From IMG/VR virus record IMGVR_UViG_3300042889_001061, positions 47,145 to 111,144 of that record: DNA of 64,000 nucleotides, one strand, 5' to 3'. Origin of the DNA: a virus. The notes below the pieces were generated by a model. It was not told where the DNA came from and searched no databases. It was given only the letters and a program-made list of their open reading frames with translations. Of this stretch, positions 10,075 to 63,073 are shown in pieces. Positions within the stretch are counted from its first letter, which is position 1, and the number at the start of each line of letters is the position of its first letter. Made by a program: the position numbers and the translations under genes.

Positions 10075-10377
10075 ATGAAAAAATTATTCATCACTCTGGC
10101 ATTAGCCTGTGTAACATTGCCTGCATTGGCACAACATCATGGATACCGTCATCACAATCACCACTATCGAGGTCCGGGATACGGCAGCTGGGTAGCACCG
10201 CTAATTATTGGCGGTGCTATTAGTTATACATTAACTAGACCTGAGCCTATAATTATACAGCAACCAGTATATATCGAACAGCAACCAATACCATTAAATC
10301 AAAATTGTGGTCCGTGGAAAGAAGTCTGGACTTCTGATGGCAAAATTTATAGAGAAAGAACTTGTACTAGTCAATAA
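10075..10377 (+). CDS. Secreted His-rich small protein
   Basis: 100 aa behind a strong AAGGAG site. A signal peptide (MKKLFITLALACVTLPALAQ, cleavage after ALA) is followed by a His/Tyr/Gly-rich stretch (HHGYRHHNHHYRG), a hydrophobic glycine segment, and a C-terminal part with two Cys (NCGPWKEVW...RTC). Likely exported to the host periplasm; the His stretch could bind metal. A terminator follows. Confidence 0.82.
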   Translation: MKKLFITLALACVTLPALAQHHGYRHHNHHYRGPGYGSWVAPLIIGGAISYTLTRPEPIIIQQPVYIEQQPIPLNQNCGPWKEVWTSDGKIYRERTCTSQ

Positions 10378-10410
10378 CTAATACTGACGCCGACCTAAAC
10401 TATTCGTATT

Positions 10411-10457
10411 AAACATTTATACGGTACTACTTTTAAGTACTAGTGTAAATGTTTTTA
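10411..10457 (+). terminator. Rho-independent terminator
   Basis: Stem AAACATTTA (10411-10419) with TAAATGTTT (10446-10454), inner stem GTACT/AGTAC, then a T run. It closes the unit of the secreted His-rich protein and lies just before the tRNA. Confidence 0.75.
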
Positions 10458-10459
10458 GT

Positions 10460-10546
10460 GGATAGTTGGTCGAGAGGCTTATGACACCAATCTCCGAAGT
10501 TGGCAAAGACGCGAGTCTTTCAGGGGTTCAAATCCCCTACTATCCT
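10460..10546 (+). tRNA. Class II tRNA-like gene, apparent anticodon CCG (identity uncertain)
   Basis: Acceptor GGATAGT/ACTATCC, D stem GTC/GAC, anticodon stem CCAAT/GTTGG around loop CTCCGAA (CCG at positions 34-36), long variable arm AAAGAC-GCGA-GTCTTT, T arm AGGGG-TTCAAAT-CCCCT. The body is serine-like, but CCG is an arginine anticodon, the discriminator is T and no CCA is encoded. It may be a tRNA-Ser relative with a changed anticodon or a decaying gene. Confidence 0.8.
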
Positions 10547-10559
10547 CTAAGAACATTTT

Positions 10560-10805
10560 ATGAAAACAATTATTTTATTAACAACAATCTTACTATCGGG
10601 GTGTAGTTCACTGAACACAGTATTGTATAACAGTGCCAATGCTTGTTTAGAAGCACAGAAATCAATTAGTAAAGATTCTGCGATGACAGAAATTGCAAGA
10701 TTAAATGCAATACAAGAAATAGCAAAAACTGCCAACGATGAAACTAAAAGGACATTGTCGTCTTTAATAAATAATAAACGACAAACTGATATTATATGTA
10801 AATAA
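10560..10805 (+). CDS. Small lipoprotein
   Basis: 81 aa. N-terminal MKTIILLTTILLSGCSS has a clear lipobox (LSGC, Cys at residue 15), so it is probably a lipid-anchored envelope protein. The mature part is helical (AMTEIARLNAIQEIAKTAND) and ends with a second Cys. It lies between the class II tRNA and the tmRNA. Could act in lysis control or superinfection exclusion; nothing specific supports either. Confidence 0.82.
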   Translation: MKTIILLTTILLSGCSSLNTVLYNSANACLEAQKSISKDSAMTEIARLNAIQEIAKTANDETKRTLSSLINNKRQTDIICK

Positions 10806-11232
10806 AAGTTAAGACTGTATGAAGTAGACAGAAAAGGATTCAAGACGCGGGGGCAGTGCCCGCCAGGTCCACCAAAAGTATTGTGAACAGAAACAAGTAA
10901 TGAACCCGAGCTGTGTACAGGCAGAGGTGTAGTGAACGAAAGTAAGTGGCACAGGCTAGTACAACGGAAGAGGTGTTAAACCCGTAGATTAAGTTCCTAC
11001 GCTCTCGCTCAACCGATGCCAGTAGATCGTACCTACTATACTTTTGATGGGCCTGACACAGGATCGATTGGGTCACAAGTATTGAAATGGACAGTCCGGC
11101 AATGTAGAAGCCGTTAGGATTGGGGATTTCCCGGTCGAAGAAGCAAAACAAAGTAACCGCAAACGACTCACAGTTCGCATTAGCTGCCTAAACTCAGCTT
11201 AGGGTAAGACATACCTCGTAACAGAAAATCAG
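10806..11232 (+). ncRNA. ssrA: Circularly permuted two-piece tmRNA
   Basis: tmRNA rescues stalled ribosomes and tags the nascent peptide for ClpXP. Seen: an acceptor piece first, with T-arm GCGGG/CCCGC (10847-10863) around a non-standard GGCAGTG loop, acceptor strand CAGGTCC (10864-10870), A73 and encoded CCA (10872-10874); then an intervening segment; then the 5' acceptor strand GGGCCTG (11049-11055) that pairs with CAGGTCC and keeps the G3-U70 alanine identity pair; then GACACAGGATCGATTGGG, matching the conserved tmRNA 5' domain; then the tag frame at 11159-11191. The order acceptor-before-coding is the permuted arrangement known from alphaproteobacteria, some cyanobacteria and a betaproteobacterial lineage. 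Exact mature ends are not determinable here. Confidence 0.93.
11159..11191 (+). other. tmRNA tag reading frame ANDSQFALAA-stop
   Basis: GCA AAC GAC then six codons to GCT GCC TAA encode ANDSQFALAA, a typical proteobacterial degradation tag ending in ALAA, which ClpXP recognises. It is preceded by AGTAACC, in the usual place just upstream of the resume codon. Confidence 0.95.
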
Positions 11233-11258
11233 AAACCCGCTTCGGCGGGTTTTCTTTT
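11233..11258 (+). terminator. Terminator of the tmRNA gene
   Basis: AAACCCGC-TTCG-GCGGGTTT hairpin (11233-11252) followed by TCTTTTCT. Confidence 0.92.
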
Positions 11259-11309
11259 CTAATTAATTATAAAAATTTTAAAGAGTTCTTCGCTGAGATA
11301 GATGTATTA

Positions 11310-12194
11310 TCAGTTCGGGGAATCGTTGATTATCTCACTACTGCAATAGTATTTGCCACCGGTGGTCAGCAAATCGCTGATTAACTGATCCAAAGGTACA
11401 CTAATGAAATCTTTTCTGTAAGTATGTCTTGGACCTTGTATTACATAGTCTATATTTTCTGCACCAGACATTTTTGGAAAATATATTAAATCTTTACCCC
11501 AATATTTTCCATAATACATGCCTTTAATAAAGGAGTCCCACCAACTGATATTACGTACTCCTTGTTTTGTGTATAGTCCATGAGCATTAATAAATGCTGT
11601 CATTATATCGTCTTTAACTGTACTTACAACAACTTCGCTGGTTTTATCAAATAATATATATTCAGCGGTTCTGCCTAAAGTGTCTCCTGCACGTTTTCGT
11701 GACATTTCAAAAGTATGATAACCTTCATAAAAATGTGCAATACCTTTAACAAAGGTTATAAAAGGGCCGTCTCCGCCCTGCAAAAAGTTTACATCAGGTA
11801 ATTGGCCGAGAAACTTACTATGAATTATTTGAAATGGCGGAATATTTAAATTTTTACTGATGTCAAGTATTTCTTCTTTACAGGCCATGGGATCAATGTC
11901 AATGATATGTGATTTAAACTGCCAAGCACGTTCCAATTTTTTTAAATTATTAAACTCAATATCATTATAACCTGGCATATAAAGAAATGCAGTTTCAATT
12001 TTAATACCTTGATCCATAAAACTTCTCAACGCGGCTTGACTATCAACACCAGAACTAATACCTAATATAAGTTTGTCCCCCAGGGCAATTATATCTCTAG
12101 CTCGACGATTATACTCTTCTCGAAGATTGCCCACTTCCCACTGACATTGGTCGTATTCGATGTAAAATCCTTGGCTATCTGTGTTGAATTGCAT
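11310..12194 (-). CDS. PP-loop ATPase (N-type ATP pyrophosphatase fold)
   Basis: 294 aa. The PP-loop ISSGVDSQAALR lies near residue 45 (SGxDS signature), with a second strand motif TAFLYMPGYNDIE. The fold adenylates a substrate and releases PPi, as in QueC, TilS, asparagine synthetase and PAPS reductase. The family member is not recognised; there are no zinc cysteines as in QueC. It is divergent from a second PP-loop gene 36 bp away, so the two probably form a functional pair. Confidence 0.83.
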   Translation of the reverse strand: MQFNTDSQGFYIEYDQCQWEVGNLREEYNRRARDIIALGDKLILGISSGVDSQAALRSFMDQGIKIETAFLYMPGYNDIEFNNLKKLERAWQFKSHIIDIDPMACKEEILDISKNLNIPPFQIIHSKFLGQLPDVNFLQGGDGPFITFVKGIAHFYEGYHTFEMSRKRAGDTLGRTAEYILFDKTSEVVVSTVKDDIMTAFINAHGLYTKQGVRNISWWDSFIKGMYYGKYWGKDLIYFPKMSGAENIDYVIQGPRHTYRKDFISVPLDQLISDLLTTGGKYYCSSEIINDSPN

Positions 12195-12230
12195 ATTGTA
12201 TATTGCCTTAATAAATACATATTTATTACT

Positions 12231-13385
12231 ATGACAAACAAAAAATTAGGGTATTATACATGTGCCGGTCTGGAATTTGAATCTAAAATTCAAGCATGTC
12301 TACATGCAGTCGCCACAGGTAGGGAAGTTCAATGGCATTTTAACGATGAGATTTTTTCAAAACACAATTGGAGTGTAGAGCCGGAATTAAGTCTTGATGC
12401 ATTGTATAATTTAAGAAGTAAGCAGATTAGAGAAAAATACGACTATGTTGTATTAAGTTACAGCGGTGGCGCAGACAGTCATAATATCTTAATGAGCTTT
12501 ATCCGCCAGGGTCTACACATAGACGAAATTGTTGTAAACAACATGGAAAAAGCCAACCGGCAATTCACGGATCTCAATGTAAACAATACAGATCCAACTA
12601 ATACTCCCGCCGAGTTTAGATTACAGGCTGTACCTAGATTAAAGGAAATCGCAGTACTAATTCCTAGAACAAAAATCACAGTCTGTGATCTCAGTGAACA
12701 CTTGTTTGACTACATGAATTCGGCCAAAGATGCCAGTTGGGTATTAGGCCGCAAGGAAGGCCTTAACGCTGCCAATGCCACTAGATATAATTATTTGGCC
12801 ATGACTGAAATTAGAAAACAGTTTGATAAAAACAAGTCCATGGTCATTGTTGTGGGCGTGGACAAACCACGTTGTTTTATACGCAATGGTGATTTTTATA
12901 TTAGATTTGCAGATCGTGCTGCCAACATTGTTCCAATCCCCGATCACTTGAACGAGTACACAAACAGCACGGTAGAACTATACTATTGGAGTCCGGACAG
13001 TATAGATATTTTAACTAAACAAGCACATGTTGTTCGTCGCTGGTTAAAATTTAAACCTGAAATGCAAAAATTGTTTGACAGTGATGTAATGGCAGATCCC
13101 AAAATATTTAGAATTTACCACGAGCAACTTCTTAAAAATATTGTATATACGACATGGAATGAAAATTGGTTTCAAACAGATAAAGCAGTCAAAGACTGGA
13201 CCAGTGAATTTGATCAATGGTTTGAAGATGGATACAGTGATACAAGAGCATATGGTATTTGGCTGGAAGGCGTTAACTTCGTCAAGGACAAGCTACACAC
13301 ATTTGCCAATCATCGCAATGGCGATCTCGATGGCTTAAAGCTGTTTGGAAAAAACTATAAAATAGGATCTTTTGCAGATCGTTGA
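12231..13385 (+). CDS. PP-loop ATPase, divergent partner
   Basis: 384 aa from the ATG at 12231. The PP-loop VLSYSGGADSHNILM is near residue 65, after an N-terminal strand region (YYTCAGLEFESKIQACLHA). The C-terminal half is Trp- and charge-rich. Same ATP-pyrophosphatase superfamily as the opposite-strand gene, with a longer C terminus; the two share little obvious identity outside the loop. It ends two bases before the convergent Bug-type gene. Confidence 0.83.
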   Translation: MTNKKLGYYTCAGLEFESKIQACLHAVATGREVQWHFNDEIFSKHNWSVEPELSLDALYNLRSKQIREKYDYVVLSYSGGADSHNILMSFIRQGLHIDEIVVNNMEKANRQFTDLNVNNTDPTNTPAEFRLQAVPRLKEIAVLIPRTKITVCDLSEHLFDYMNSAKDASWVLGRKEGLNAANATRYNYLAMTEIRKQFDKNKSMVIVVGVDKPRCFIRNGDFYIRFADRAANIVPIPDHLNEYTNSTVELYYWSPDSIDILTKQAHVVRRWLKFKPEMQKLFDSDVMADPKIFRIYHEQLLKNIVYTTWNENWFQTDKAVKDWTSEFDQWFEDGYSDTRAYGIWLEGVNFVKDKLHTFANHRNGDLDGLKLFGKNYKIGSFADR

Positions 13386-13387
13386 TT

Positions 13388-14293
13388 TTATTGTTTAATT
13401 TCTAGTTTATTGTTTTGTATAAATTTAGTCAACGCTCGATTTGATTTTAATACAGAATTTATCATCCAGGGCTCTGTTGAGCCTATGGGCAATAAACCTG
13501 CAACAAACGTAGTATCTTTAAATTCCTTGCTGGATAATATCTTCGAAACATCTGCGATAATTTTATTCTTATTGTCAGTTTCCATAGATTTAGAAACTAC
13601 TAATGCTACATAACTTTGATATGGAAATGGTTCTTTAAAGTATTGTTCCCATGTAAGAATTTTATCTCCCATGTCATGACTGGCAAATAACACAGTGATT
13701 CGTGGATCAGTGATTATTACTTTGATGCCTGCATAGTTGCCAAACGTACAATCTACATTTCCAGCCAGTACGTCCAATGCACCTTTGTTGCCGCCTGCAG
13801 GATAAGGTATTGCCAAATGCTTGCCTTTGGCATGAACAAACAAAGATTCGGATGCAATATGTTCGGAGCTGCCATAACCGTTAATGGCAAAACTCAATGA
13901 TTTTGTTGTTGATAAAAAGTCGTCAAACGTTTTGATTCCTAGTTTTGAATTACATATTAATAAATTTGGAAGAACAGCAACGACTGCTAATATTTCCAAG
14001 TCTGTGTCTGGATTGTATTCCAAATCTTTAAACATCATTGGATTGGTTACATATATTTGTGGTACAGTGGCCATTAAAACACTGTTGCCTTGTAAGACAT
14101 GTTTGACTGCGATTCTGCCGGCACCACCAGGACGATTTTGCACAATATAGCCAGCAGACGCTGGTAAGTTTTTTGTGATCAATCTGGCAATTCTATCGCT
14201 GGGTCCACCCGGAGCATGATGAACAGTGAATTCTACAGCATGAGCCGAAATGCATATACACATTCCCAAAAGTATTTTTTTAAGTTTATTCAT
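13388..14293 (-). CDS. Bug-type (TctC family) periplasmic solute-binding protein
   Basis: 301 aa with a signal peptide (MNKLKKILLGMCICISAHA). Family motifs: HHAPGGPSDRIARLI near residue 27, VQNRPGGAGRIAV near residue 52, PYPAGGNKGALDVLAGNVD near residue 165. Bug proteins capture carboxylates and aromatic acids for tripartite tricarboxylate transporters and are greatly expanded in Burkholderiales. No TctA/TctB genes are nearby, so it would have to work with a host transporter, act as a decoy or have another job. Very unusual cargo for a phage; likely acquired from the host. Confidence 0.9.
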   Translation of the reverse strand: MNKLKKILLGMCICISAHAVEFTVHHAPGGPSDRIARLITKNLPASAGYIVQNRPGGAGRIAVKHVLQGNSVLMATVPQIYVTNPMMFKDLEYNPDTDLEILAVVAVLPNLLICNSKLGIKTFDDFLSTTKSLSFAINGYGSSEHIASESLFVHAKGKHLAIPYPAGGNKGALDVLAGNVDCTFGNYAGIKVIITDPRITVLFASHDMGDKILTWEQYFKEPFPYQSYVALVVSKSMETDNKNKIIADVSKILSSKEFKDTTFVAGLLPIGSTEPWMINSVLKSNRALTKFIQNNKLEIKQ

Positions 14294-27226: not shown

Positions 27227-27651
27227 CAGACGAAACACAACATTATTACATCACTCCCCCTACTTTATTTTTACCTCCTGCGGGTCTTAGAGTATCATTA
27301 ATCGGTGTCGACGAAGATTGGATTGACAATATGAGTGACGAACTAGAGGATACTTTACCCAGTATTCCTATGACGTTTTATCATTTGGATACCAAAACAT
27401 CAGATCAATGGCAATGGCAATATCATATGATGGAACAAAGCAATCTTATTGTGGTCAATGTTGCACGTAGCTTGTCCATTGATTTATTGTTATCCTTTTT
27501 ACATATGGGCGACAACAAAATTTGGTTCTTTGTTGACCCAGAAGAAGTAGACAAAAACATTATGATATTATTAAATACTATTAATGCAAATGTGTTTTCT
27601 AGTTCGGATGAATTTCATAGTATGTTAACAGCGTTTATTGGTAATGCCTAA
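27223..27651 (+). CDS. Hypothetical protein upstream of ClpX
   Basis: 142 aa, ATGA overlap with the membrane protein and eight-base overlap with clpX, so tightly coupled. Alternating strands and helices (LRVSLIGVDEDWIDNM, SNLIVVNVARSLSIDLLLSFL, KIWFFVDPEEVD) suggest a Rossmann-like alpha/beta fold. No catalytic motif recognised. Confidence 0.8.
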   Translation: MTDETQHYYITPPTLFLPPAGLRVSLIGVDEDWIDNMSDELEDTLPSIPMTFYHLDTKTSDQWQWQYHMMEQSNLIVVNVARSLSIDLLLSFLHMGDNKIWFFVDPEEVDKNIMILLNTINANVFSSSDEFHSMLTAFIGNA

Positions 27652-28876
27652 TCAACCATTGATGAAATGCAGTTTCTGTGAAAAATCGCAGAACGAAGTA
27701 AAAAAACTTGTTGCAGGTGCAACTGGTTACATCTGCGATGAATGTATTGTATTGTGCAATGAAGTCATCAAAGATGATTTAATCAAATCGTCGTCTAAAG
27801 ACAATAAACTTCCCACTCCTCGAGAAATATTTGATCATCTTGATCAGTATGTTATTGGACAGGATCTTCCCAAATTAACTATGAGTGTGGCAGTGTACAA
27901 TCACTACAAGCGATTGTTTAACAAAAGCGATGTAGAGATTGAAAAGAGCAATGTATTATTAATTGGTCCAACTGGCAGTGGTAAAACATTATTGGCTAAA
28001 AGTATTGCTAGATTCCTGGATGTGCCTTTTGCTATCACAGATGCTACAAGTTTAACAGAAGCAGGCTATGTTGGTGAAGATGTTGAAAACGTTATTCATA
28101 AATTATATCAGGCGGCAGATCAAAACATCGAACGCTGTGAACAGGGCATTATCTATATTGACGAAATAGATAAAAAAGGACGCAAGAGTGAAGGTACTAG
28201 TATTACTCGTGATGTATCGGGCGAAGGCGTACAGCAAGCATTGTTAAAGATCATCGAAGGCACAGAATGTCGTGTACCAAGTGGAGGCGGCCGTAAACAT
28301 CCCGGTGGCGAAACATTAACTATTAACACTAAGAATATTTTGTTTATTCTAGGTGGAGCATTTGTAGGTCTAGAAGAAATTATTAACAAACGGGTAAATA
28401 CAAAATCTACCATGGGCTTTGTAGGAAGTCCTGTTAAAGAAAAAACATCGTTGGCGGGTGTTACATCCAGTGATGTTATCAAATGGGGTATGATTCCTGA
28501 GCTTGTGGGACGTATGCCACAGATTGCTGTATTAGAAGAACTCACAGAAGAACAACTTGTACGAGCAATGACCGAACCGAAGAACAGCTTGGTCAGTCAA
28601 TATCAAAGTCTATTCAAAATGGACAATGTCGAATTGACCATAGACGATCGAGCGGCATTGGCCATTGCAGTCAAATGCACTGAAATGAAATTAGGAGCAC
28701 GTGGTTTACGTGCAGAGCTAGAAAGTATACTGCTTAAAACGCAGTTTGTATTACCTGACTTGGCAGCAGAGAATGTCACGAAAGTTACAATTACAGAGGA
28801 AACAGTAACACATGGTAAAGAACCACTATTAATATATGGCAAACGAAAGACAAAACGAGAACAGAATTCTCAGTAA
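27644..28876 (+). CDS. clpX: ATP-dependent Clp protease unfoldase ClpX
   Basis: 410 aa, full length. N-terminal zinc domain CSFC...YICDEC (residues 9-40), Walker A GPTGSGKTLLAKS (about 107), Walker B IIYIDEIDKKG (about 167), sensor 2 GARGLRAELE. ClpX unfolds substrates, including tmRNA-tagged proteins, for ClpP. The start at 27644 was chosen because it is the first ATG (TTG at 27638 and ATG at 27662 are alternatives). With phage ClpP (50372), ClpS and tmRNA it forms a degradation kit. It overlaps infC by 41 bp. Confidence 0.96.
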   Translation: MPNQPLMKCSFCEKSQNEVKKLVAGATGYICDECIVLCNEVIKDDLIKSSSKDNKLPTPREIFDHLDQYVIGQDLPKLTMSVAVYNHYKRLFNKSDVEIEKSNVLLIGPTGSGKTLLAKSIARFLDVPFAITDATSLTEAGYVGEDVENVIHKLYQAADQNIERCEQGIIYIDEIDKKGRKSEGTSITRDVSGEGVQQALLKIIEGTECRVPSGGGRKHPGGETLTINTKNILFILGGAFVGLEEIINKRVNTKSTMGFVGSPVKEKTSLAGVTSSDVIKWGMIPELVGRMPQIAVLEELTEEQLVRAMTEPKNSLVSQYQSLFKMDNVELTIDDRAALAIAVKCTEMKLGARGLRAELESILLKTQFVLPDLAAENVTKVTITEETVTHGKEPLLIYGKRKTKREQNSQ

Positions 28877-29366
28877 TCGCGAAATCAGAAGTCGCGATGT
28901 TCGTCTAATCAACGAAGATGGAAGTAACGGAGGAGTCGTACCGTTCTTCACTGCATTGAACTTAGCGCAGAATCAAGGACTTGACTTGATTCAAATCAAT
29001 GCTACGACTAATCCTCCGGTTTGCAAAATAGGTGACTTGGGTAAGTACAAATACGAAGCGCAGAAGAAACAAAACGAGCAAAATAAAAAGAACAGAGAGA
29101 ATCGTGTGGACATCAAAGAAGTGCAACTTCGTCCTGCGATTGATACACATGATTTGGATATTAAAGTAAATAAGATCAAGGAGTGGATTGCCGACGGAGA
29201 TAAAGTTAAAGTTGTAATTCGTTTCCGTGGACGAGAAATGGCCAACCAATCAGTTGGATTTAAATTAATCGAACACATTATAGCAACAGTACCGAGTGCT
29301 AAAGTTGAAGGCCGTAGCGAAATTCAGGGCAATAGACTTACTGCTATAATCAGTCAAGCAAAGTGA
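28836..29366 (+). CDS. infC: Translation initiation factor IF-3
   Basis: 176 aa, full length with both domains: N-domain (RDVRLINEDGSNGGVVPFF, NPPVCKIGDLGKYKYE), linker helix rich in Lys/Asn, C-domain (DLDIKVNKIKEWI, KVVIRFRGREMA, SEIQGNRLTAII). IF-3 separates ribosomal subunits and checks the start codon and initiator tRNA. It uses ATG rather than the rare AUU that autoregulates host infC, so it can escape that control. The start lies inside clpX (41-bp overlap). Rare in phages, known in huge ones. Confidence 0.95.
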   Translation: MANERQNENRILSNREIRSRDVRLINEDGSNGGVVPFFTALNLAQNQGLDLIQINATTNPPVCKIGDLGKYKYEAQKKQNEQNKKNRENRVDIKEVQLRPAIDTHDLDIKVNKIKEWIADGDKVKVVIRFRGREMANQSVGFKLIEHIIATVPSAKVEGRSEIQGNRLTAIISQAK

Positions 29367-29373
29367 GATAAAC

Positions 29374-29610
29374 ATGGCAAGAAAAGATGGCCCATTAATG
29401 GGCAGTAAAGTTATTGTACAAAACGATAACTGGGAAAAGGCATTACGCACTTTTAAGAAAAAGATTCTTGAAAGCGGTAAACTAATCGAACTTAAAGAAA
29501 AAGAGTTCTATGAAAAGCCAACGACTAAGCGTCGTAAGAATAAAAATCAACAAATTCGCCGGGCACAAAAGAAGCGCGAAGCAGAAGCACTACCGAAAAA
29601 AATGTATTGA
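29374..29610 (+). CDS. rpsU: Ribosomal protein bS21
   Basis: 78 aa with the bS21 pattern: SKVIVQNDNWEKALRTFKKKI, KLIELKEKEFYEKPTTKRR and a very basic C-terminal tail. bS21 sits near the anti-Shine-Dalgarno region of the 30S platform and exchanges readily, so a phage version could redirect initiation. The gene is 7 bp after infC, in the same translation-takeover operon. Confidence 0.95.
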   Translation: MARKDGPLMGSKVIVQNDNWEKALRTFKKKILESGKLIELKEKEFYEKPTTKRRKNKNQQIRRAQKKREAEALPKKMY

Positions 29611-29611
29611 T

Positions 29612-29989
29612 ATGAATGACGATACTATAACTATTGATTTGAGTGAGGTCAAACCCGTAGAATTCTCATGGAACGAAAGTGACATGAGCACTAGTTTTAT
29701 AGCACAGGATGTTGGAACAGCTTATACTATATTAGGTAATAATCCTAATACTGTTACACTAAACAGTGGAATTAGTATTACAACTACAGGCATTGCCGCC
29801 AGCGGCAGCTATACCATTTCAACACCCTATGATGACATGGAACAGCGTTTAGCGAGATTGGAAAAGATCATAGCTGAAGAAGACGAAGTTCGCAAGAATC
29901 ATCCTGCTGTTCAAATGGCCTATGATGAGTATCGTTTGTTATACATTTTGGCAAAGAAAAATGCCGGCGACTACTTGACAGACGAGTGA
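29612..29989 (+). CDS. Hypothetical protein after bS21 with C-terminal coiled coil
   Basis: 125 aa from the ATG at 29612. A Ser/Thr-rich beta N-terminal part (NTVTLNSGISITTTGIAASG) resembles fibre proteins; residues 70-112 are a helix (MEQRLARLEKIIAEEDEVRK). The 3' end contains the -35 box of the next promoter. Function unknown. Confidence 0.72.
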   Translation: MNDDTITIDLSEVKPVEFSWNESDMSTSFIAQDVGTAYTILGNNPNTVTLNSGISITTTGIAASGSYTISTPYDDMEQRLARLEKIIAEEDEVRKNHPAVQMAYDEYRLLYILAKKNAGDYLTDE

Positions 29990-30003
29990 TATTTTAGTAT
30001 AAT
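29975..30003 (+). promoter_or_regulatory. Sigma70-type promoter of hsp20
   Basis: TTGACA (29975-29980), 17 bp, TATAAT (29998-30003). The -35 lies within the upstream reading frame. Predicted start of RNA near 30010. Confidence 0.87.
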
Positions 30004-30019
30004 ACAAGATAAATAATAT

Positions 30020-30088
30020 TGTACAGTGCCAAGAGGGCTGTACAGTTAGGGCATGTAGCCCAAAACGTTCTTGCTTATTTAAGGAGAA
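30020..30088 (+). promoter_or_regulatory. ROSE-like RNA thermometer in hsp20 leader
   Basis: Three hairpins in the 83-nt leader: TGTACAG/CTGTACA (30020-30044), GGGC/GCCC (30049-30061), and TTCTTGCTT (30068-30076) pairing with AAGGAGAA (30081-30088) over a 4-nt loop with one bulged G. The last masks the Shine-Dalgarno and contains UUGCU facing AGGA, the hallmark of ROSE elements. Heat would open it and switch on Hsp20. Confidence 0.75.
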
Positions 30089-30092
30089 AATT

Positions 30093-30533
30093 ATGAACGC
30101 ATTAACACGATTTGACACAGCCGCTTTACAGCAAATGAATAAAGCACTTATTGGATTTGACCGCTTGTTTACAGAACGAGCATACACTACAAATCCAACT
30201 TACCCTCCATACAATATCATTAAGAAAAGTGAAGACAACTACGAAATCGAAGTAGCAGTTGCTGGCTTTACACTTGATGAAATTGATGTAGAAGTCAATC
30301 AAAACCAACTTATTATTCGTGGACAAAGCCAGCGTGATGCTGACGCTGAAGTCGAATACTTACATAGAGGTCTTGCTAATAGAGACTTCGAAAAAGTACT
30401 TACATTAGCAGAACACATGCAAGTGGGTGACGCTAGTATCAAGGATGGAGTTCTTAGAGTAGAAATAACTAGGATTGTACCTGAGGCATTAAAACCTCGC
30501 AAAATCAACGTTATCGGCATCGATAAGAACTAA
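30093..30533 (+). CDS. Small heat-shock protein (Hsp20/IbpA type)
   Basis: 146 aa. Alpha-crystallin domain at residues 35-125 (YPPYNIIKKSEDNYEIEVAV, GFTLDEIDVEV, FEKVLTLAEHM, VLRVEITRIV) and the C-terminal I-x-I anchor INVIGI that docks in dimers. ATP-independent holdase that protects unfolding proteins. Has its own promoter and a predicted thermosensing leader. Common in T4-like phages, where it may aid capsid or host protein stability. Confidence 0.95.
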   Translation: MNALTRFDTAALQQMNKALIGFDRLFTERAYTTNPTYPPYNIIKKSEDNYEIEVAVAGFTLDEIDVEVNQNQLIIRGQSQRDADAEVEYLHRGLANRDFEKVLTLAEHMQVGDASIKDGVLRVEITRIVPEALKPRKINVIGIDKN

Positions 30534-30543
30534 AGCGTAAGAT

Positions 30544-30562
30544 GGGGGACATTTCGTCCCCC
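30544..30562 (+). other. GC-rich hairpin between hsp20 and clpS
   Basis: GGGGGAC-5 nt-GTCCCCC (30544-30562) with no T run after it; probably an mRNA processing or stability element rather than a terminator. Confidence 0.6.
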
Positions 30563-30588
30563 TGATAAATACTAATACAAGGAATAAA

Positions 30589-30891
30589 ATGACTTTAATG
30601 GCAACAGAAACTTCTCAAACTACAAAAATCGTTATTAAAAAACCTAGCTTATATAAGGTTATTTTTAACAACGACGAAAGCACACCTGCTGATTTTGTCA
30701 AGGATTTATTAAAAGCCATTTTCCATCATGATGATATTCGGGCAGAGAATATCACTACGGAAATCCATGAACAGGGCAAAGGCGTAGCAGGCATTTATAC
30801 GTTTGAAGTAGCCGAACAAAAACATCAAGAAGCCATTTATGTAGCCCGCACAAATGGACACCCACTAAACATTAATTTAGAGTCAGAATAA
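30589..30891 (+). CDS. clpS: ClpS-like N-end rule adaptor
   Basis: 100 aa with an AAGGA site. Features: YKVIFNNDESTPADFV (strand and the conserved NND used for N-degron binding), FHHDD, IHEQGKGVAGIYTFEVAEQK, and GHPL near the C terminus. ClpS delivers N-degron substrates to ClpAP and inhibits other ClpA substrates. No phage ClpA is in the window, so it may steer host ClpA. It shares TAATG with the next gene. Confidence 0.93.
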   Translation: MTLMATETSQTTKIVIKKPSLYKVIFNNDESTPADFVKDLLKAIFHHDDIRAENITTEIHEQGKGVAGIYTFEVAEQKHQEAIYVARTNGHPLNINLESE

Positions 30892-32665: not shown

Positions 32666-34057
32666 TTAGACAGGGCTGTGTCTTGCTAAATTAGCAAGAG
32701 GTTGCTCTAACATTATATCAGGGCAATGTCTTGCTAAGATGTCATGTACTTCTGGCAAGACCTTTCGCCAGTTGGTGCCCCTGATTTTATCTAGTTTGTC
32801 CATTACTGTTACAAATTCTTGATATTTTTTTGAATTTTCTCGGTCTATATATTTTTCTAATAATTTAATAATTGCTTTATACCACTTGGTGCGATTTTCT
32901 GTATGATGCATTAAATTTTTATAATGTTCGATGATTTCTTCCTTGGCCGATCTTGGTAAAGATCGCAGATCTAACCAAGCTGGACCTTCTAAAAATCTAA
33001 ATTCTGCAGGGACGTCTAGTTCTTCGGCAACTTCAACTATTCGTTCTATAGAGTATATAGACGCGAGTCCTATACAACATGAAAGATAACGTATACTCAT
33101 ACCATTTTCTTTAATAGTTTTTATGTTCTTAACAATATTATTATAATTTCCCGGAAAACGAATAAGATTGTATCTTTCCTCCACGTCGTCGAGACTAACA
33201 CAAAAGTCAATATTCTTAAAGAATTTAAATTTTTCAATAATCTTATTATTGATTACAGTTAAATTTGTATCGTATCGCAGTGTAATATTTTTTGCAAAAT
33301 CCCTTGCTATTAAACGATTTAATATTTCAGTCATAGCAGGAGAAATCAACGGCTCGCCACCGGAAAAATAAATGTATCTCAAGTCGGGTGCAATCTTATC
33401 AAAACGTTCCCACCAAATATCACTTTCCCACCATTTCGAATAATCTAAAATCTCTCGACCTTTGGTATCTGTGGTCATCCTATAATCTTTGTCACCCCAC
33501 TCAGTACCCGCCGGCGTAACTTGGACATCGCCCCAAAGTTTACTCCAATCTTCATACCAAAGACTGCTGTATTCAGGACTGCACATTATACATTTTTGAT
33601 TGCATAAATTGCTCAATCGAAGGCCTAAATTTACAACCTTGGCAGTTGAAGTACCATCGGGTAATGTATATTGATCGGCCTGATCCCAGCGGACATATTC
33701 TGGAATCCGTTTAGTCATATGCCTATTGACTCGTTGTCTTTTACTCTTGCCCCATTTTTTAACATCTTCGTCGCCTGGCACATCAAGGCCTTTAGTGCTA
33801 TGCTCAGCATCATAACAATTACGACATCTCGTTACTTTAATATTTTCTTTAAGTTGTAATCGATGATTTTTATGGGTTACACTATTAATAGCCTCTTCTA
33901 TGGAATGGGTCATGACATTCATTACGTTGCCATTCTCATCATGCGCCATTCCATAATCTTTATTATAATTTGCCAGGCAACATATTTTATAGTCACCGAG
34001 TGTGTTGATTTCTATTTGGCTCCACAACTCGCCACAAAAACTTTCTAAATTAAACAT
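32666..34057 (-). CDS. Twitch-domain radical SAM protein (1)
   Basis: 463 aa. The cysteine-rich twitch part comes first (FCGELWSQIEINTLGDYKIC near residue 8; CRNCYDAEH near 76), then the radical SAM core with SNLCNQKCIMCSPEYSS (CxxxCxxC, about residue 153), IYFSGGEPLISPAM and CVSLDDVEERY. This inverted domain order matches the N-terminal-twitch radical SAM proteins seen in phages and marine bacteria. Product unknown. Closely related in layout to the gene at 57892. Confidence 0.9.
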   Translation of the reverse strand: MFNLESFCGELWSQIEINTLGDYKICCLANYNKDYGMAHDENGNVMNVMTHSIEEAINSVTHKNHRLQLKENIKVTRCRNCYDAEHSTKGLDVPGDEDVKKWGKSKRQRVNRHMTKRIPEYVRWDQADQYTLPDGTSTAKVVNLGLRLSNLCNQKCIMCSPEYSSLWYEDWSKLWGDVQVTPAGTEWGDKDYRMTTDTKGREILDYSKWWESDIWWERFDKIAPDLRYIYFSGGEPLISPAMTEILNRLIARDFAKNITLRYDTNLTVINNKIIEKFKFFKNIDFCVSLDDVEERYNLIRFPGNYNNIVKNIKTIKENGMSIRYLSCCIGLASIYSIERIVEVAEELDVPAEFRFLEGPAWLDLRSLPRSAKEEIIEHYKNLMHHTENRTKWYKAIIKLLEKYIDRENSKKYQEFVTVMDKLDKIRGTNWRKVLPEVHDILARHCPDIMLEQPLANLARHSPV

Positions 34058-50112: not shown

Positions 50113-50370
50113 ATGGAGATAATTCGTTTTTTACAATGGCAATGGCGCCAGTTCGAACTATGGCAGAAATGTTATTTTGTAGCATTGTTTTGTTTGGGTT
50201 TTGGTCTGGCAACAGATAATCCGGTACACAAGGAATATATGTTAACACTGGGCGGCGGCATTATTGGTTTGCTACTATTCAAATGGGTGTTCATTGATCA
50301 AACAAAGAAAAGTTATAATGAATACAAACGTCAAAGAGATAATTTGTTTAATGAAATTAAAGGTGAATAA
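50113..50370 (+). CDS. Small membrane protein before clpP
   Basis: 85 aa. One to two membrane segments ([32 protein letters not shown]) then a charged helix ([18 protein letters not shown]). Lies directly before clpP in the same unit. Confidence 0.75.
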
Positions 50371-50371
50371 A

Positions 50372-50992
50372 ATGAGTTTGGTTCCAATGGTATTAGAACG
50401 CACGGGTAATTCAGAACGTGCCATGGATCTGTATAGCCGTTTAATGCGTGACCGTATTATTCTGCTTGAAGGCGAAGTACATGATCAAATGGCTAACCTT
50501 ATTGTAGCACAGATGCTATTCCTCGAAAGTGAAGACAGCGGTAAAGACATTACAATGTTTATTAACAGTCCTGGCGGAAGTGTAACGTCTGGCTTGGCTA
50601 TCTATGACACTATGCAGTTTATTAAACCAGATGTATCAACGTATGTCATGGGTCAAGCGTCTAGCATGGGTTCGTTCCTAGCACAGGCAGGTGCCGCAGG
50701 TAAGCGTTTTGTTCTTCCAGAAAGTCGTACGATGATCCATCGTGTTAGTTCAGGTACTCGTGGCACCAGCGGCAGTGTCCACGTACAAGACCTACAGTTT
50801 GAAGATGCTAAACGTAGTTTCGAGGAAAGTGTGCGGATCAACAAAAGATTGACAGAATTGTATGTACGTCACAATACTGCTGGCAAGACATATGATGAAC
50901 TATTTGCAACAATGAAGTTTGACACATTCCTTAGTGCAGAAGAGGCAGTGGCAAGTGGTTTGGCTGACCAAGTAATTTATAAACGACCATGA
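50372..50992 (+). CDS. clpP: ATP-dependent Clp protease proteolytic subunit
   Basis: 206 aa. Start at 50372 (AAAGGTGAATAAA before ATG). Catalytic triad: Ser in [10 protein letters not shown] (about residue 95), His in [10 protein letters not shown] (about 120), Asp in [10 protein letters not shown] (about 170). N-terminal PMVLERT is the usual start of the mature enzyme. Forms the ClpXP/ClpAP chamber; with phage ClpX it could make an all-phage protease or mixed complexes. Confidence 0.95.
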
Positions 50993-57891: not shown

Positions 57892-59307
57892 ATGACTATA
57901 AAAGGAAATAATTTTAGCAACGAGAGTTTTTGTCCAGAAGTATATAATCAGATTCAGATTGATATGCAAGGCGATTTAAGAGTTTGCTGTTTGTCTTCTG
58001 ACGGCGGCCTAGCTAGAGAGGCCAGCGGAACTCCAATGAATGTAAAAACGCATTCAATCATCACCGCAATGAACAGCGAAATACACAAACAACACAGGTT
58101 AGATTTAAGTAATAACATTAAACCTCAACGATGCAGTAATTGCTATAATTGGGAAAATCACAGCAATGATACGAGTCGTCGTAAAAAGTTTATCAGACTA
58201 TCTCAAAATAAACTTGACTATGTCAAAGCCAGTGAAGCATTTGATGTAACAAACGATGACGGCTCCGTCGATGTTGACACTACTAAGTTGATTAATTTAG
58301 ATATAAGATTTGGTAATCTGTGTAACCTCAAGTGCATTATGTGTGATCCAGGAAATAGTAGTCTGTGGTATGAAGACTGGGATCTGCTATCTAGAAAATT
58401 TTCAAAAACTGAAGCCAGTGGACGATCGGTTAAATTTCAATTGGGTGGAATAGATCCGATCACTGGAAATACTCAGTACTGGAAAGATAAAACTAAATTT
58501 TATTCTCTTGAAAAGAATCAGTTAGGCAAATTGAAATTGCAAAATGAAGAAAACTGGTGGGAAACTGAATCGTGGAAAAATCAGTTTAAAAAAATTGCGC
58601 CCCAGTTACAGCATATTTACTTTACAGGCGGAGAGCCCTTGCTGGTACCAGCAATGGAAGAACACTTAACTTATCTAATTGAAAACGATTTTGCTAAAAA
58701 TATTATGCTGTGTTACGACACAAACCTGACAGTTGTCAATTCAAACATAATTAACAAATGGAAATTTTTTAAAGAAGTTGACTTGAGGGTCAGCGTAGAC
58801 GACACCGGTGACCGCTATAATGTGGTTCGAAATCCTGGAAATTTTGACAAGTTATATGATAACATAACTCGAATTCAAGAAGCCAACATAAAAATTAAAT
58901 ACATAAGCATAGTTTGTCACTTGGCCAATGTTTATGGTGTAATTCGCGTTGCAAAGTTAGCAAAACAGATAGGTGCTTCAATGTCATTGAGATTTGTAAC
59001 TAGACCGGGATGGATGAATGTGTCGAATTTACCTAATTCTGCTAAAGAAGAAGTAATTTCAGTGCTTACTAAATTTTTAGAATCCGAAGAATGTGAATCT
59101 ATCCGAGGATATGAAAATTTCGTTCAACAACAAATAAAGCATTTTCGTGACAACCAAACAACATCTTCACCAAACACAGGATCAAATTTGGAAACTTTTG
59201 TGCAAGTAATGAATCTAATGGATCAGTCTAGAAATCTAAACTGGAAACATACATTGTCTGATATTGCAGAACTTTTAAAGAAACATGTGCCGGGATTGGA
59301 CATATAA
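57892..59307 (+). CDS. Twitch-domain radical SAM protein (2)
   Basis: 471 aa. Twitch part first (FCPEVYNQIQIDMQGDLRVC near residue 13; CSNCYNWENH near 82), then radical SAM core FGNLCNLKCIMCDPGNSS (about residue 144), IYFTGGEPLLVPAM and RVSVDDTGDRY. Long C-terminal helices and a Ser/Asn-rich insert. Same layout as the gene at 32666 and probably a paralogue. It lies between tRNA-Arg and tRNA-Thr. Confidence 0.9.
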   Translation: MTIKGNNFSNESFCPEVYNQIQIDMQGDLRVCCLSSDGGLAREASGTPMNVKTHSIITAMNSEIHKQHRLDLSNNIKPQRCSNCYNWENHSNDTSRRKKFIRLSQNKLDYVKASEAFDVTNDDGSVDVDTTKLINLDIRFGNLCNLKCIMCDPGNSSLWYEDWDLLSRKFSKTEASGRSVKFQLGGIDPITGNTQYWKDKTKFYSLEKNQLGKLKLQNEENWWETESWKNQFKKIAPQLQHIYFTGGEPLLVPAMEEHLTYLIENDFAKNIMLCYDTNLTVVNSNIINKWKFFKEVDLRVSVDDTGDRYNVVRNPGNFDKLYDNITRIQEANIKIKYISIVCHLANVYGVIRVAKLAKQIGASMSLRFVTRPGWMNVSNLPNSAKEEVISVLTKFLESEECESIRGYENFVQQQIKHFRDNQTTSSPNTGSNLETFVQVMNLMDQSRNLNWKHTLSDIAELLKKHVPGLDI

Positions 59308-61822: not shown

Positions 61823-63073
61823 ATGTCAAAAACAAAATTCTCTCAAACTGTTGTATGTCCAAATCCATGGACCGCAATGTATTTTCATATCAACTCTCCA
61901 AGTCCGTGTCATATCATAAGAAACGGTCTTATGAACATGACCATGGAAGAGTATATAAACAGCGAGTGGTTAGTAGACATTAAACAAAAAATGATTAATG
62001 GCATACGCCCAAAAGAATGCGAAAATTGCGAAACGAAAGAAAGACTAGGTCTCAAAAGTACTAGGGGTGCTTCTTGGCGTTACTGGAACATAGGTGAAGA
62101 ACCTAATCTAGAAGATCAACCATGGTTTCACAATATAACTGTTGACACTCCTACAAAGCCTAAACGAATAGAGTTGAGATTTAGTAATTTGTGCAATATG
62201 AAATGCAGAATGTGTGATGAAGCATCGAGTTCTGAAATTGCAAAAGAAAAACAAAAATACAATTTAGGCAATGATATTAATAATAATCCCGATAATATCT
62301 TTTTCGAAGATACTGACGAAAGCGTGTTAAAAATTACTGATGATAATATTCAAGGTTTAAAGAATATTGAATTACTACGCGACTTGCGTAAAGTATGTTT
62401 CACTGGCGGAGAACCATTTCTAATCAAAGGTTATTATGATTATCTTGATTTTTTAATTGAACACAAATTTAACGAGCGAGTTGAATTAGAATTATTTACA
62501 AATACAAGTGTATATAATAAATTGTTTGTAGATCGTTTAATGAAATTTCCTAAAGTAGAATTTACCATGAGCATTGACGGCGTTGGTAAAACAGCTGAAT
62601 ATATTAGACATGGTACAAAATGGGCTACGATTGAAAAAAATGTATTAACATTCAATTCTATGCCAAAGCCAATATTATGCTCGATAAATGTTGCAATTTC
62701 AGCTTATGTTTTGTTAGATGTATCTAATCTGGCATTATTTTTGATGAGACTATATCGTGAAAATAATAACATATTGATTAAATGTTATACTGTATTAATG
62801 CAGAGTCTTCGTTTTACATCTGCCCCTGCACATCTCAAAGAACGTATGTTACGTGAAATTGATTTAGCAATAGATATATTAGACTGTCCAAATTTTGCAA
62901 TATTTAGAAATGAATTGCTGAATTTACGTCCGCGAGTACTGTCAGCATTGAATGTTTCTAGGCCGCTCGACGAGAAGAAATTTATAGAGTTTACTCAAAC
63001 ATACGATAAGATTAGAAACGAATCGTTCGAGAATACATTCGGTATCCCGTTAATTTTAGATAAGGAAGAATGA
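61823..63073 (+). CDS. Twitch-domain radical SAM protein (3)
   Basis: 416 aa. Cysteine-rich N terminus (VVCPNPWTAMYFHINSPSPC; ECENCETKERLG), core SNLCNMKCRMCDEASSS (about residue 125), VCFTGGEPFLIKGY and FTMSIDGVGKTAEYI. Shorter and more divergent than the other two. It sits alone between tRNA-Trp copy 2 and the duplicated tRNA-Trp 3' half, suggesting insertion at the tRNA gene. Confidence 0.9.
   Translation: MSKTKFSQTVVCPNPWTAMYFHINSPSPCHIIRNGLMNMTMEEYINSEWLVDIKQKMINGIRPKECENCETKERLGLKSTRGASWRYWNIGEEPNLEDQPWFHNITVDTPTKPKRIELRFSNLCNMKCRMCDEASSSEIAKEKQKYNLGNDINNNPDNIFFEDTDESVLKITDDNIQGLKNIELLRDLRKVCFTGGEPFLIKGYYDYLDFLIEHKFNERVELELFTNTSVYNKLFVDRLMKFPKVEFTMSIDGVGKTAEYIRHGTKWATIEKNVLTFNSMPKPILCSINVAISAYVLLDVSNLALFLMRLYRENNNILIKCYTVLMQSLRFTSAPAHLKERMLREIDLAIDILDCPNFAIFRNELLNLRPRVLSALNVSRPLDEKKFIEFTQTYDKIRNESFENTFGIPLILDKEE

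What the first reader, a model, noticed from the sequence alone, without database searches (positions are those of the whole stretch)
10806..11258. Circularly permuted two-piece tmRNA carried by a phage
The acceptor piece with CCA end (10847-10874) lies upstream of the 5' acceptor strand and tag frame (11049-11191). The acceptor halves pair over seven base pairs with the G3-U70 alanine signal, the tag reads ANDSQFALAA and a clean terminator follows. The T-loop of the acceptor piece is non-canonical, as expected for two-piece molecules. One-piece tmRNAs are known in some phages; a permuted one here suggests capture from a host lineage (probably betaproteobacterial) and links to phage ClpX and ClpP.
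Basis: partly seen in the sequence, partly recalled or inferred. Interest (0 to 1): 0.9.

Follow-up and report, generated by a model that had tools for sequence, protein, structure and literature searches.

The report
Phage two-piece tmRNA with swappable insert
A virus of bacteria carries its own copy of the RNA that rescues stuck ribosomes, built in two pieces with a removable spacer between them; related viruses trade these spacers like cassettes, and some spacers hold complete small genes.

Summary
Confirmed: window 10813-11191 is a circularly permuted (two-piece) tmRNA gene (Rfam RF04321, 99.6 bits, cut-off 47, E 3.5e-18). It lies on a 111-kb fragment of a jumbo myovirus whose tail sheath is nearest PA5oct-like phages. 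The tag is ANDSQFALAA, the acceptor stem is 7/7 with G3-U70, and a terminator follows. The phage also encodes ClpX, ClpP, ClpS, IF3, bS21 and Hsp20, but no SmpB; none of 39 other permuted-tmRNA records of 80 kb or more has SmpB either. Phage two-piece tmRNAs are already published (Melnitz, PMC9004378), so the gene is a new member. It is mosaic: alpha-type T- and D-loops on a beta-type coding piece. The new part is the 174-nt intervening segment. In a relative 93-96% identical around this locus exactly that segment is replaced, while a phage with an 81%-identical coding piece carries the same segment at 97%. Across 157 phage tmRNAs the segment behaves as an exchangeable cassette. In some phages (16 of 113; 0.6 expected) it holds a complete small gene, usually ending at the conserved UGA before GGG. 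The window's own segment holds no such gene. No RNA data were available.

The parts
10813..10874 (+). acceptor piece: P2 strand 10813-10817, T stem-loop 10847-10863 (loop GGCAGUG, alpha-type), 3' acceptor strand 10864-10870, ACCA 10871-10874
   Evidence: RF04321 alignment; RF04321 33 bits on this piece alone, cut off at its 3' end; letters
10875..11048 (+). intervening segment (174 nt), expected to be removed; closing stem AAAGTAT 10875-10881 / ATACTTT 11038-11044; ends TGAT. Exchangeable cassette; no SD+ORF here
   Evidence: 97.1% identical over 174/174 nt to the segment of L029, whose coding piece is only 81% identical; replaced in L116/L473 with both flanks 93-96% identical; closing stem and TGAT conserved in 157 tmRNAs
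11049..11230 (+). coding piece (3' end approximate): 5' acceptor strand 11049-11055, D-loop with GGATCGAT, P2 strand 11092-11096, conserved 3' block 11199-11226 (TTAGGGTAAGACATACCTCGTAACAGAA)
   Evidence: best Rfam match of the piece alone is beta_tmRNA, 44.8 bits; conserved block in relatives
11159..11191 (+). tag reading frame, ANDSQFALAA and stop
   Evidence: same tag in 69 of 157 unique phage tmRNAs in a sample partly chosen by tag
11232..11258 (+). rho-independent terminator
   Evidence: letters
27638..28876 (+). phage ClpX (zinc finger, Walker A GPTGSGKT, MGF in the ClpP-contact loop); probable start ATG 27644
   Evidence: Pfam zf-C4_ClpX 60.8 bits, AAA_2 99.6; sequence; Walker A
50264..50992 (+). 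phage ClpP, Ser-His-Asp residues present
   Evidence: Pfam CLP_protease 209.9 bits; sequence; 54.9% identical to PA5oct-group ClpP
30589..30891 (+). phage ClpS adaptor
   Evidence: Pfam ClpS 83.9 bits
28836..29366 (+). phage translation initiation factor IF-3, directly after clpX
   Evidence: Pfam IF3_N 94.2 and IF3_C 88.7 bits
29374..29610 (+). phage ribosomal protein bS21
   Evidence: Pfam Ribosomal_S21 42.6 bits
30093..30533 (+). phage small heat-shock protein (Hsp20)
   Evidence: Pfam HSP20 63 bits

Best explanation
This is a working phage gene for a two-piece tmRNA. A precursor is transcribed from upstream of 10813 and stops at the terminator at 11232-11258. The acceptor stem, extended by the closing stem of the intervening segment, brings the halves together; host RNase P cuts before GGG 11049 and 3' processing frees CCA 10874, so the 174-nt segment is lost and two RNAs held by the acceptor stem and P2 remain. 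Charged with alanine and carried by host SmpB, it frees ribosomes stalled on broken mRNA in the infected cell and adds ANDSQFALAA, whose -ALAA end directs the product to ClpXP, host's or phage's own. Because the removed segment does not enter the mature RNA, it is free to change: phages exchange it as a cassette, and in some relatives it is a complete small protein gene. Shown by sequence: gene structure, acceptor pairing with covariation, tag, terminator, phage Clp proteins, absence of SmpB, exchange of the segment, coding character of the inserts in other phages. Inferred: expression, cleavage, charging, tagging, and the protease used.
For: CM match at twice the gathering score. Acceptor halves covary over 20-339 nt spacers, 98% paired versus 82% in re-dealt pairs, G3-U70 constant. 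T-loop and D-loop types go together (GGCAGTG with GGATCGAT in 23 of 24). A relative keeps the gene at the same locus. Closing stem of at least 6 bp in 97% of segments versus 8% of shuffles; window 7 bp. Exchange: same segment, different tmRNA (window/L029 97.1% versus 81%; L514/L529 95% over 382 nt with coding pieces too different for a blastn hit); same tmRNA, different segment (window versus L104, L021, L096, L117: coding pieces 91-95%, no match between segments). Phage ClpX/ClpP/ClpS, with 0 SmpB in the window's contig and in 39 further tmRNA-bearing records.
Against: No transcript, cleavage or tagging data. The window's segment folds no better than shuffles (z -0.11) apart from its closing stem. 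clpP is present in only 18 of 39 of the large tmRNA-bearing records, so phage ClpP is not required. The contig is a fragment, so smpB could lie on the missing part.
Confidence: 0.83

Rival explanations
1. The RNA is made but serves mainly to occupy SmpB or the host rescue path (a decoy), rather than to tag proteins, as suggested for the tag-less phage DS6A tmRNA.
For: No phage SmpB in any of 40 permuted-tmRNA phage records including the window; a tRNA-like-domain-only RNA inhibits tmRNA (PMC4131195; PMC11915505).
Against: All extracted phage tmRNAs have a tag frame because they were chosen so, but its C-terminus is strongly constrained and AND.xFALAA variants dominate even in sets not chosen by tag; a decoy needs no tag.
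Confidence: 0.1
2. A degenerating passenger: a captured tmRNA gene without use to the phage.
For: tmRNA is present or absent among related jumbo phages (absent from Cassandra, Atu_ph07 and the fragment G012).
Against: Compensatory acceptor changes, T-loop/D-loop coupling, intact tag and terminator, retention in many diverged phages.
Confidence: 0.04
3. The intervening segment is itself a functional RNA conserved by selection, so that the 97% match to L029 reflects constraint and not transfer.
For: 97% over 174 nt while the coding piece is 81%; some segment families show paired changes in the closing stem.
Against: Relatives 91-95% identical in the coding piece have unrelated segments of 70-339 nt in its place; the fold is no better than shuffles; found only in these two contigs by exact 27-mer, none in 50,697 phage records.
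Confidence: 0.12
4. The small ORFs in other phages' segments are chance open frames or metagenome assembly errors.
For: All come from metagenomic contigs; the cultured phage Phosso has a long segment with no evident SD+ORF.
Against: 16 observed versus 0.59 expected with segment ends held fixed (max 4 in 500); changes by codon position 49/18/96, one pair per family (p 5e-13); dN/dS about 0.1 in the better-sampled families; Pfam hits above cut-off: DUF2061 72.6 bits, CxxCxxCC 29.4; CM matches run across the inserts in 12 of 13 loci; the same inserts recur in different samples.
Confidence: 0.06

Closest known systems
Two-piece tmRNA of Methylophilales phage Melnitz and pelagiphages (PMC9004378)
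   Same: Circularly permuted tmRNA gene in a large aquatic myovirus, with alpha-like features
   Different: Melnitz carries a glutamine riboswitch motif in the gene; none found here. Here the coding piece is beta-type, and the phage also has clpX, clpP and clpS. No exchange of the intervening segment was reported in the passages read
Rfam tmRNA_permuted (RF04321), with alpha_tmRNA (RF01849) and beta_tmRNA (RF01850)
   Same: Whole-length match above the RF04321 and RF01849 cut-offs
   Different: Mosaic: beta-type coding piece, alpha-type T- and D-loops; a long intervening segment
Sinorhizobium jumbo phages AP-J-162 (PMC11242549) and Phosso
   Same: Phosso is related by tail sheath (45.8%) and has a permuted tmRNA by CM (113 bits), unannotated in its record; AP-J-162 is reported to have a tmRNA, ClpX beside IF-3, and Hsp20
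   Different: Phosso's tmRNA is alpha-type (108 bits) with an unrelated segment of roughly 400 nt
Intervening sequences of bacterial permuted tmRNAs (PMC11915505)
   Same: The same gene slot; single cases with an inserted tRNA-Ala or a repetitive element are noted there
   Different: No protein genes or systematic exchange described in the text read
Group I introns of tmRNA with homing endonucleases (PMC11915505)
   Same: Inserts in a tmRNA gene that can carry a gene and move
   Different: Those sit in the T-loop and self-splice; here the insert lies between CCA and the 5' end and is expected to be removed by tRNA-processing enzymes; only one insert looks HNH-like (L580, 20.6 bits versus cut-off 21.4)

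Membership tests
permuted (two-piece) tmRNA | Match to the family model above its cut-off, whole length | tested here: met
   RF04321 99.6 bits, cut-off 47, positions 1-213 of 213
permuted (two-piece) tmRNA | CCA-bearing piece encoded upstream of the 5' acceptor strand and tag | tested here: met
   CCA 10872-10874, GGG 11049, tag 11159-11191
permuted (two-piece) tmRNA | 7-bp acceptor stem between the pieces with the G3-U70 alanine signal | tested here: met
   7/7 in the window; covaries across phage tmRNAs
permuted (two-piece) tmRNA | Tag frame ending in a ClpX/ClpA-type signal (-ALAA) and a stop | tested here: met
   ANDSQFALAA*
permuted (two-piece) tmRNA | Precursor cut into two RNAs in the cell | not testable with these tools
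   needs RNA ends; a closing stem that favours it is present
permuted (two-piece) tmRNA | Charged with alanine, bound by SmpB, active in trans-translation | not testable with these tools
   the phage contig has no smpB, so host SmpB would be needed
beta_tmRNA (RF01850) as the origin | Whole gene above the beta cut-off (84 bits) | tested here: not met
   40.5 bits; the coding piece alone is best matched by beta (44.8 bits)
alpha_tmRNA (RF01849) as the origin | Whole gene above the alpha cut-off (50 bits) | tested here: met
   64.5 bits, but the coding piece is beta-type, hence mosaic
Melnitz-type tmRNA with glutamine riboswitch | glnA/glutamine riboswitch in or beside the gene | tested here: not met
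   no such Rfam match in the window or at relaxed threshold in 10300-11400
group I intron tmRNA | Intron interrupting the T-loop | tested here: not met
   T-loop intact, no intron family match

The most novel reading that the evidence does not exclude
The slot between the two pieces of phage permuted tmRNA genes is a general cargo site. Phages exchange complete inserts there by recombination between the conserved acceptor ends, and many inserts are genes read from the tmRNA precursor or from the excised piece. In the gene-bearing inserts the Shine-Dalgarno sequence lies in the same closing stem that folds the precursor for processing, and the stop is often the UGA of the UGAU just before the RNase P cut. 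Making tmRNA and translating the nested gene would then be alternative fates of one transcript, and the state of translation in the infected cell would decide between them. The window carries a non-coding insert of this kind.
Probability: 0.3. Interest if true: 0.82.

Novelty: new variant of a known kind. Interest (0 to 1): 0.62.

Why it matters
tmRNA is a near-universal housekeeping RNA. That phages keep their own two-piece versions, with a tag not found in bacterial chromosomes in the spelling searched, and with their own ClpX/ClpP/ClpS, makes phage control of ribosome rescue testable. The exchangeable segment shows a stable RNA gene used as a docking site for small protein genes, some of known families, that annotation can miss because they lie inside an RNA gene. 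It also bears on why permuted tmRNA genes persist: the slot is free to carry cargo without harming the mature RNA.

Tried and rejected
ARAGORN does not report the gene. No relative of the whole tmRNA was found by blastn in 50,697 phage records (only short T-arm and terminator hits). The window's segment has no match there, no Rfam family, no antisense match longer than 12 nt in the phage, no tRNA by ARAGORN, and no SD+ORF; a 58-codon open frame on its minus strand was judged unsupported and set aside. The idea that the tag pattern marks a host lineage failed: the one bacterial match was a phage contig in a small-genome MAG. The pattern starts with GCAAACGAY, so bacterial genes that begin GCC (the beta consensus) would have been missed; the tag is therefore called virus-specific only in that spelling. 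A bacterial control for exchange of the segment could not be drawn, because no proteobacterial genome handle could be had. The first regexes for the 5' strand missed many cases or were off by one in GGGG runs and were replaced. Coupling of tmRNA with phage ClpP as a rule was rejected: 18 of 39. The papers on two-piece tmRNA by Keiler 2000 and Sharkady & Williams 2004 are not held, so inserts described there may have been missed.

Full report
WHAT IS THERE. The window is bases 47145-111144 of a 111,144-base IMG/VR virus record. Rfam's permuted tmRNA model matches 10813-11191 over its full length at 99.6 bits (cut-off 47, E 3.5e-18), and the alpha model matches at 64.5 bits. The letters show the parts in permuted order: T stem-loop, 3' acceptor strand and ACCA (to 10874), a 174-nt intervening segment, GGGCCTG (11049-11055), the P2 partner strand, the tag ANDSQFALAA (11159-11191), a conserved 3' block and a terminator.

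IS IT MORE THAN CHANCE. I collected phage permuted tmRNAs from IMG/VR by three DNA patterns (tag, and two T-arm types) and extracted those whose 5' strand sits before the D-loop motif: 164 unique, 157 with at least 6 acceptor pairs. The two acceptor strands pair at 98% of positions; strands re-dealt among the sequences pair at 82%, and the best of 1000 re-deals reached 85%. The third pair is G-U in every one. CM searches independently confirm 39 of 43 large records, the other four being related phages or fragments without the gene.

THE PHAGE. The tail sheath is 44.5% identical to PA5oct-like Pseudomonas jumbo phages and 45-46% to Sinorhizobium phage Phosso and Agrobacterium phage Atu_ph07. 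The contig also encodes ClpX, IF-3 (directly after clpX, as reported for AP-J-162 in PMC11242549), bS21, Hsp20, ClpS and, 40 kb from the tmRNA, a ClpP with its catalytic residues. SmpB is absent here and from all 43 other large records searched, while the same search rings in 10 of 14 control genomes. Host SmpB must therefore serve, unless smpB lies on the missing part of the genome. ClpP occurs in 18 of 39 tmRNA-bearing records and is within about 2.1 kb of the tmRNA in G026, G027, G031 and G034, and shortly after it in L179. The contig has a TctC-family receptor, a family that is greatly expanded in Burkholderiales (own knowledge), which with the beta-type coding piece hints at a betaproteobacterial host.

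ORIGIN: A MOSAIC. The coding piece alone is best matched by the beta model (44.8 bits), but the whole gene scores alpha 64.5 and beta 40.5, while the close relative G033 scores beta 105 and alpha 59; the coding piece of L096, of the same locus type as G033, is 93.6% identical to the window's. The difference is the tRNA-like domain: the window has T-loop GGCAGTG and D-loop GGATCGAT, which go together in 23 of 24 cases, whereas TGCGAAT-type T-loops mostly go with GTTTCGAC or GATTCGAC. So the T-arm, segment and D-loop of the window look exchanged as a unit on a beta-type background. This is inference from sequence types, not a dated event. The pattern requires GCAAACGAY, so the claim holds for that spelling only.

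THE SEGMENT IS A CASSETTE. Aligned with the relative L116/L473, the window is 87-89% identical up to 10403, 93% over 10539-10878 and 96% over 11042-13000; between 10878 and 11042, that is the segment, there is no similarity. Conversely L029, with a different T-arm and an 81%-identical coding piece, has the window's segment at 97.1% over 174 of 174 nt. The same two patterns recur widely: 29 pairs have segments at least 88% identical and coding pieces below 82% or unalignable, and dozens of pairs with coding pieces at least 90% identical have segments with no match to each other. In one case a 382-nt segment is 95% identical between tmRNAs whose coding pieces give no blastn hit. What stays constant is the frame: 97% of segments have a closing stem of at least 6 bp (8% in shuffles; 7 bp in the window) and 135 of 157 end in TGAT before GGG.

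SOME CASSETTES ARE GENES. Of 113 unique segments of 70 nt or more, 16 have a Shine-Dalgarno sequence, an ATG within 25 nt of CCA and an ORF of at least 20 codons that fills the segment; 0.19 are expected from dinucleotide shuffles and 0.59 (at most 4 in 500) if both segment ends are kept. Two further scans chosen for CCA+AAGGA+ATG raised this to 60 distinct gene-bearing segments; in 41 the stop is exactly the conserved TGA of TGAT|GGG. Substitutions fall on codon positions 49/18/96, counting one pair per family, and a 44-aa family has dN/dS near 0.1. Products include a DUF2061 membrane protein (72.6 bits), a CxxCxxCC protein (29.4, cut-off 23), a probable HNH endonuclease (20.6, just under its cut-off of 21.4) and many 22-40 aa peptides that look like single membrane helices by eye. 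CM matches run across the inserts in 12 of 13 such loci tested. One such gene (MFENWHWVYMWG...) lies inside the segment in L186 but as an ordinary gene just upstream of the tmRNA in L027 and L058/L109. In 57 of the 60 the Shine-Dalgarno core lies inside the closing stem; for those found by the last two scans this partly follows from how they were selected.

HOW IT MOST LIKELY WORKS. As stated under best explanation. Shown by sequence: the gene, its pairing, tag, terminator, the Clp proteins, the lack of SmpB, the exchange of segments, and the coding nature of inserts elsewhere. Inferred: transcription, cleavage by RNase P and 3' enzymes (general for permuted tmRNA, PMC3985003; two pieces seen in Orientia, PMC7335160), alanine charging, tagging, and degradation by ClpXP. 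The mechanism of exchange is not shown; homologous recombination in the conserved acceptor and D-loop ends is the simplest idea, and homing is conceivable for L580 only.

KNOWN OR NEW. Phage two-piece tmRNAs are published (PMC9004378; huge phages with tmRNA and SmpB, PMC7162821). This gene is a new member of that kind with a mosaic make-up. Exchange of the segment as a cassette and protein genes inside it were not found in the literature I could read; single bacterial cases with a tRNA or a repeat in the segment are known (PMC11915505). Older primary papers could not be read. I therefore class the finding as a new variant of a known kind, interest 0.62.

Noticed in passing
window 10460-10547 (+): tRNA with a long variable arm, anticodon CCG and U at the discriminator position; called tRNA-Arg by ARAGORN. 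It is absent from the close relative L116/L473, where the flanks join directly, so it differs between near relatives beside the tmRNA.
   Followed up: partly
window 27638-30891: A run of translation and protein-quality genes: clpX, IF-3, bS21, hsp20, clpS.
   Followed up: partly
L478 (Sinorhizobium phage Phosso 349596-350198): Unannotated permuted tmRNA with a segment of roughly 400 nt in a deposited complete genome.
   Followed up: partly
L179 (CAIMDH010000093.1): Phage contig with a permuted tmRNA (tag ANDTQFALAA), several tRNAs and clpP, binned in a bacterial MAG of a small-genome phylum.
   Followed up: yes
G026, G027, G031, G034: tmRNA and a divergent clpP lie within about 2.1 kb of each other in these phage contigs, a possible trans-translation module.
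   Followed up: partly
L044, L131, L269, L274 (segments): Segment family that looks like a reduced tRNA (T-arm GGTTCAAGTCC and an acceptor-like stem) inside the tmRNA segment.
   Followed up: no
window 13388-14293 (-): TctC-family tricarboxylate receptor on the phage, a family common in Burkholderiales; possible host clue.
   Followed up: no
window 11310-12194 (-) and 12147-13385 (+): Two divergent neighbouring genes that read like PP-loop ATPases (SGVDS / SGGADS motifs) with no Pfam or PHROG match.
   Followed up: no
window 32666-34057, 57892-59307, 61823-63073: Three proteins whose first residues resemble radical-SAM/SPASM-type proteins (CCLAN/CCLSS cysteine motifs), by eye only.
   Followed up: no
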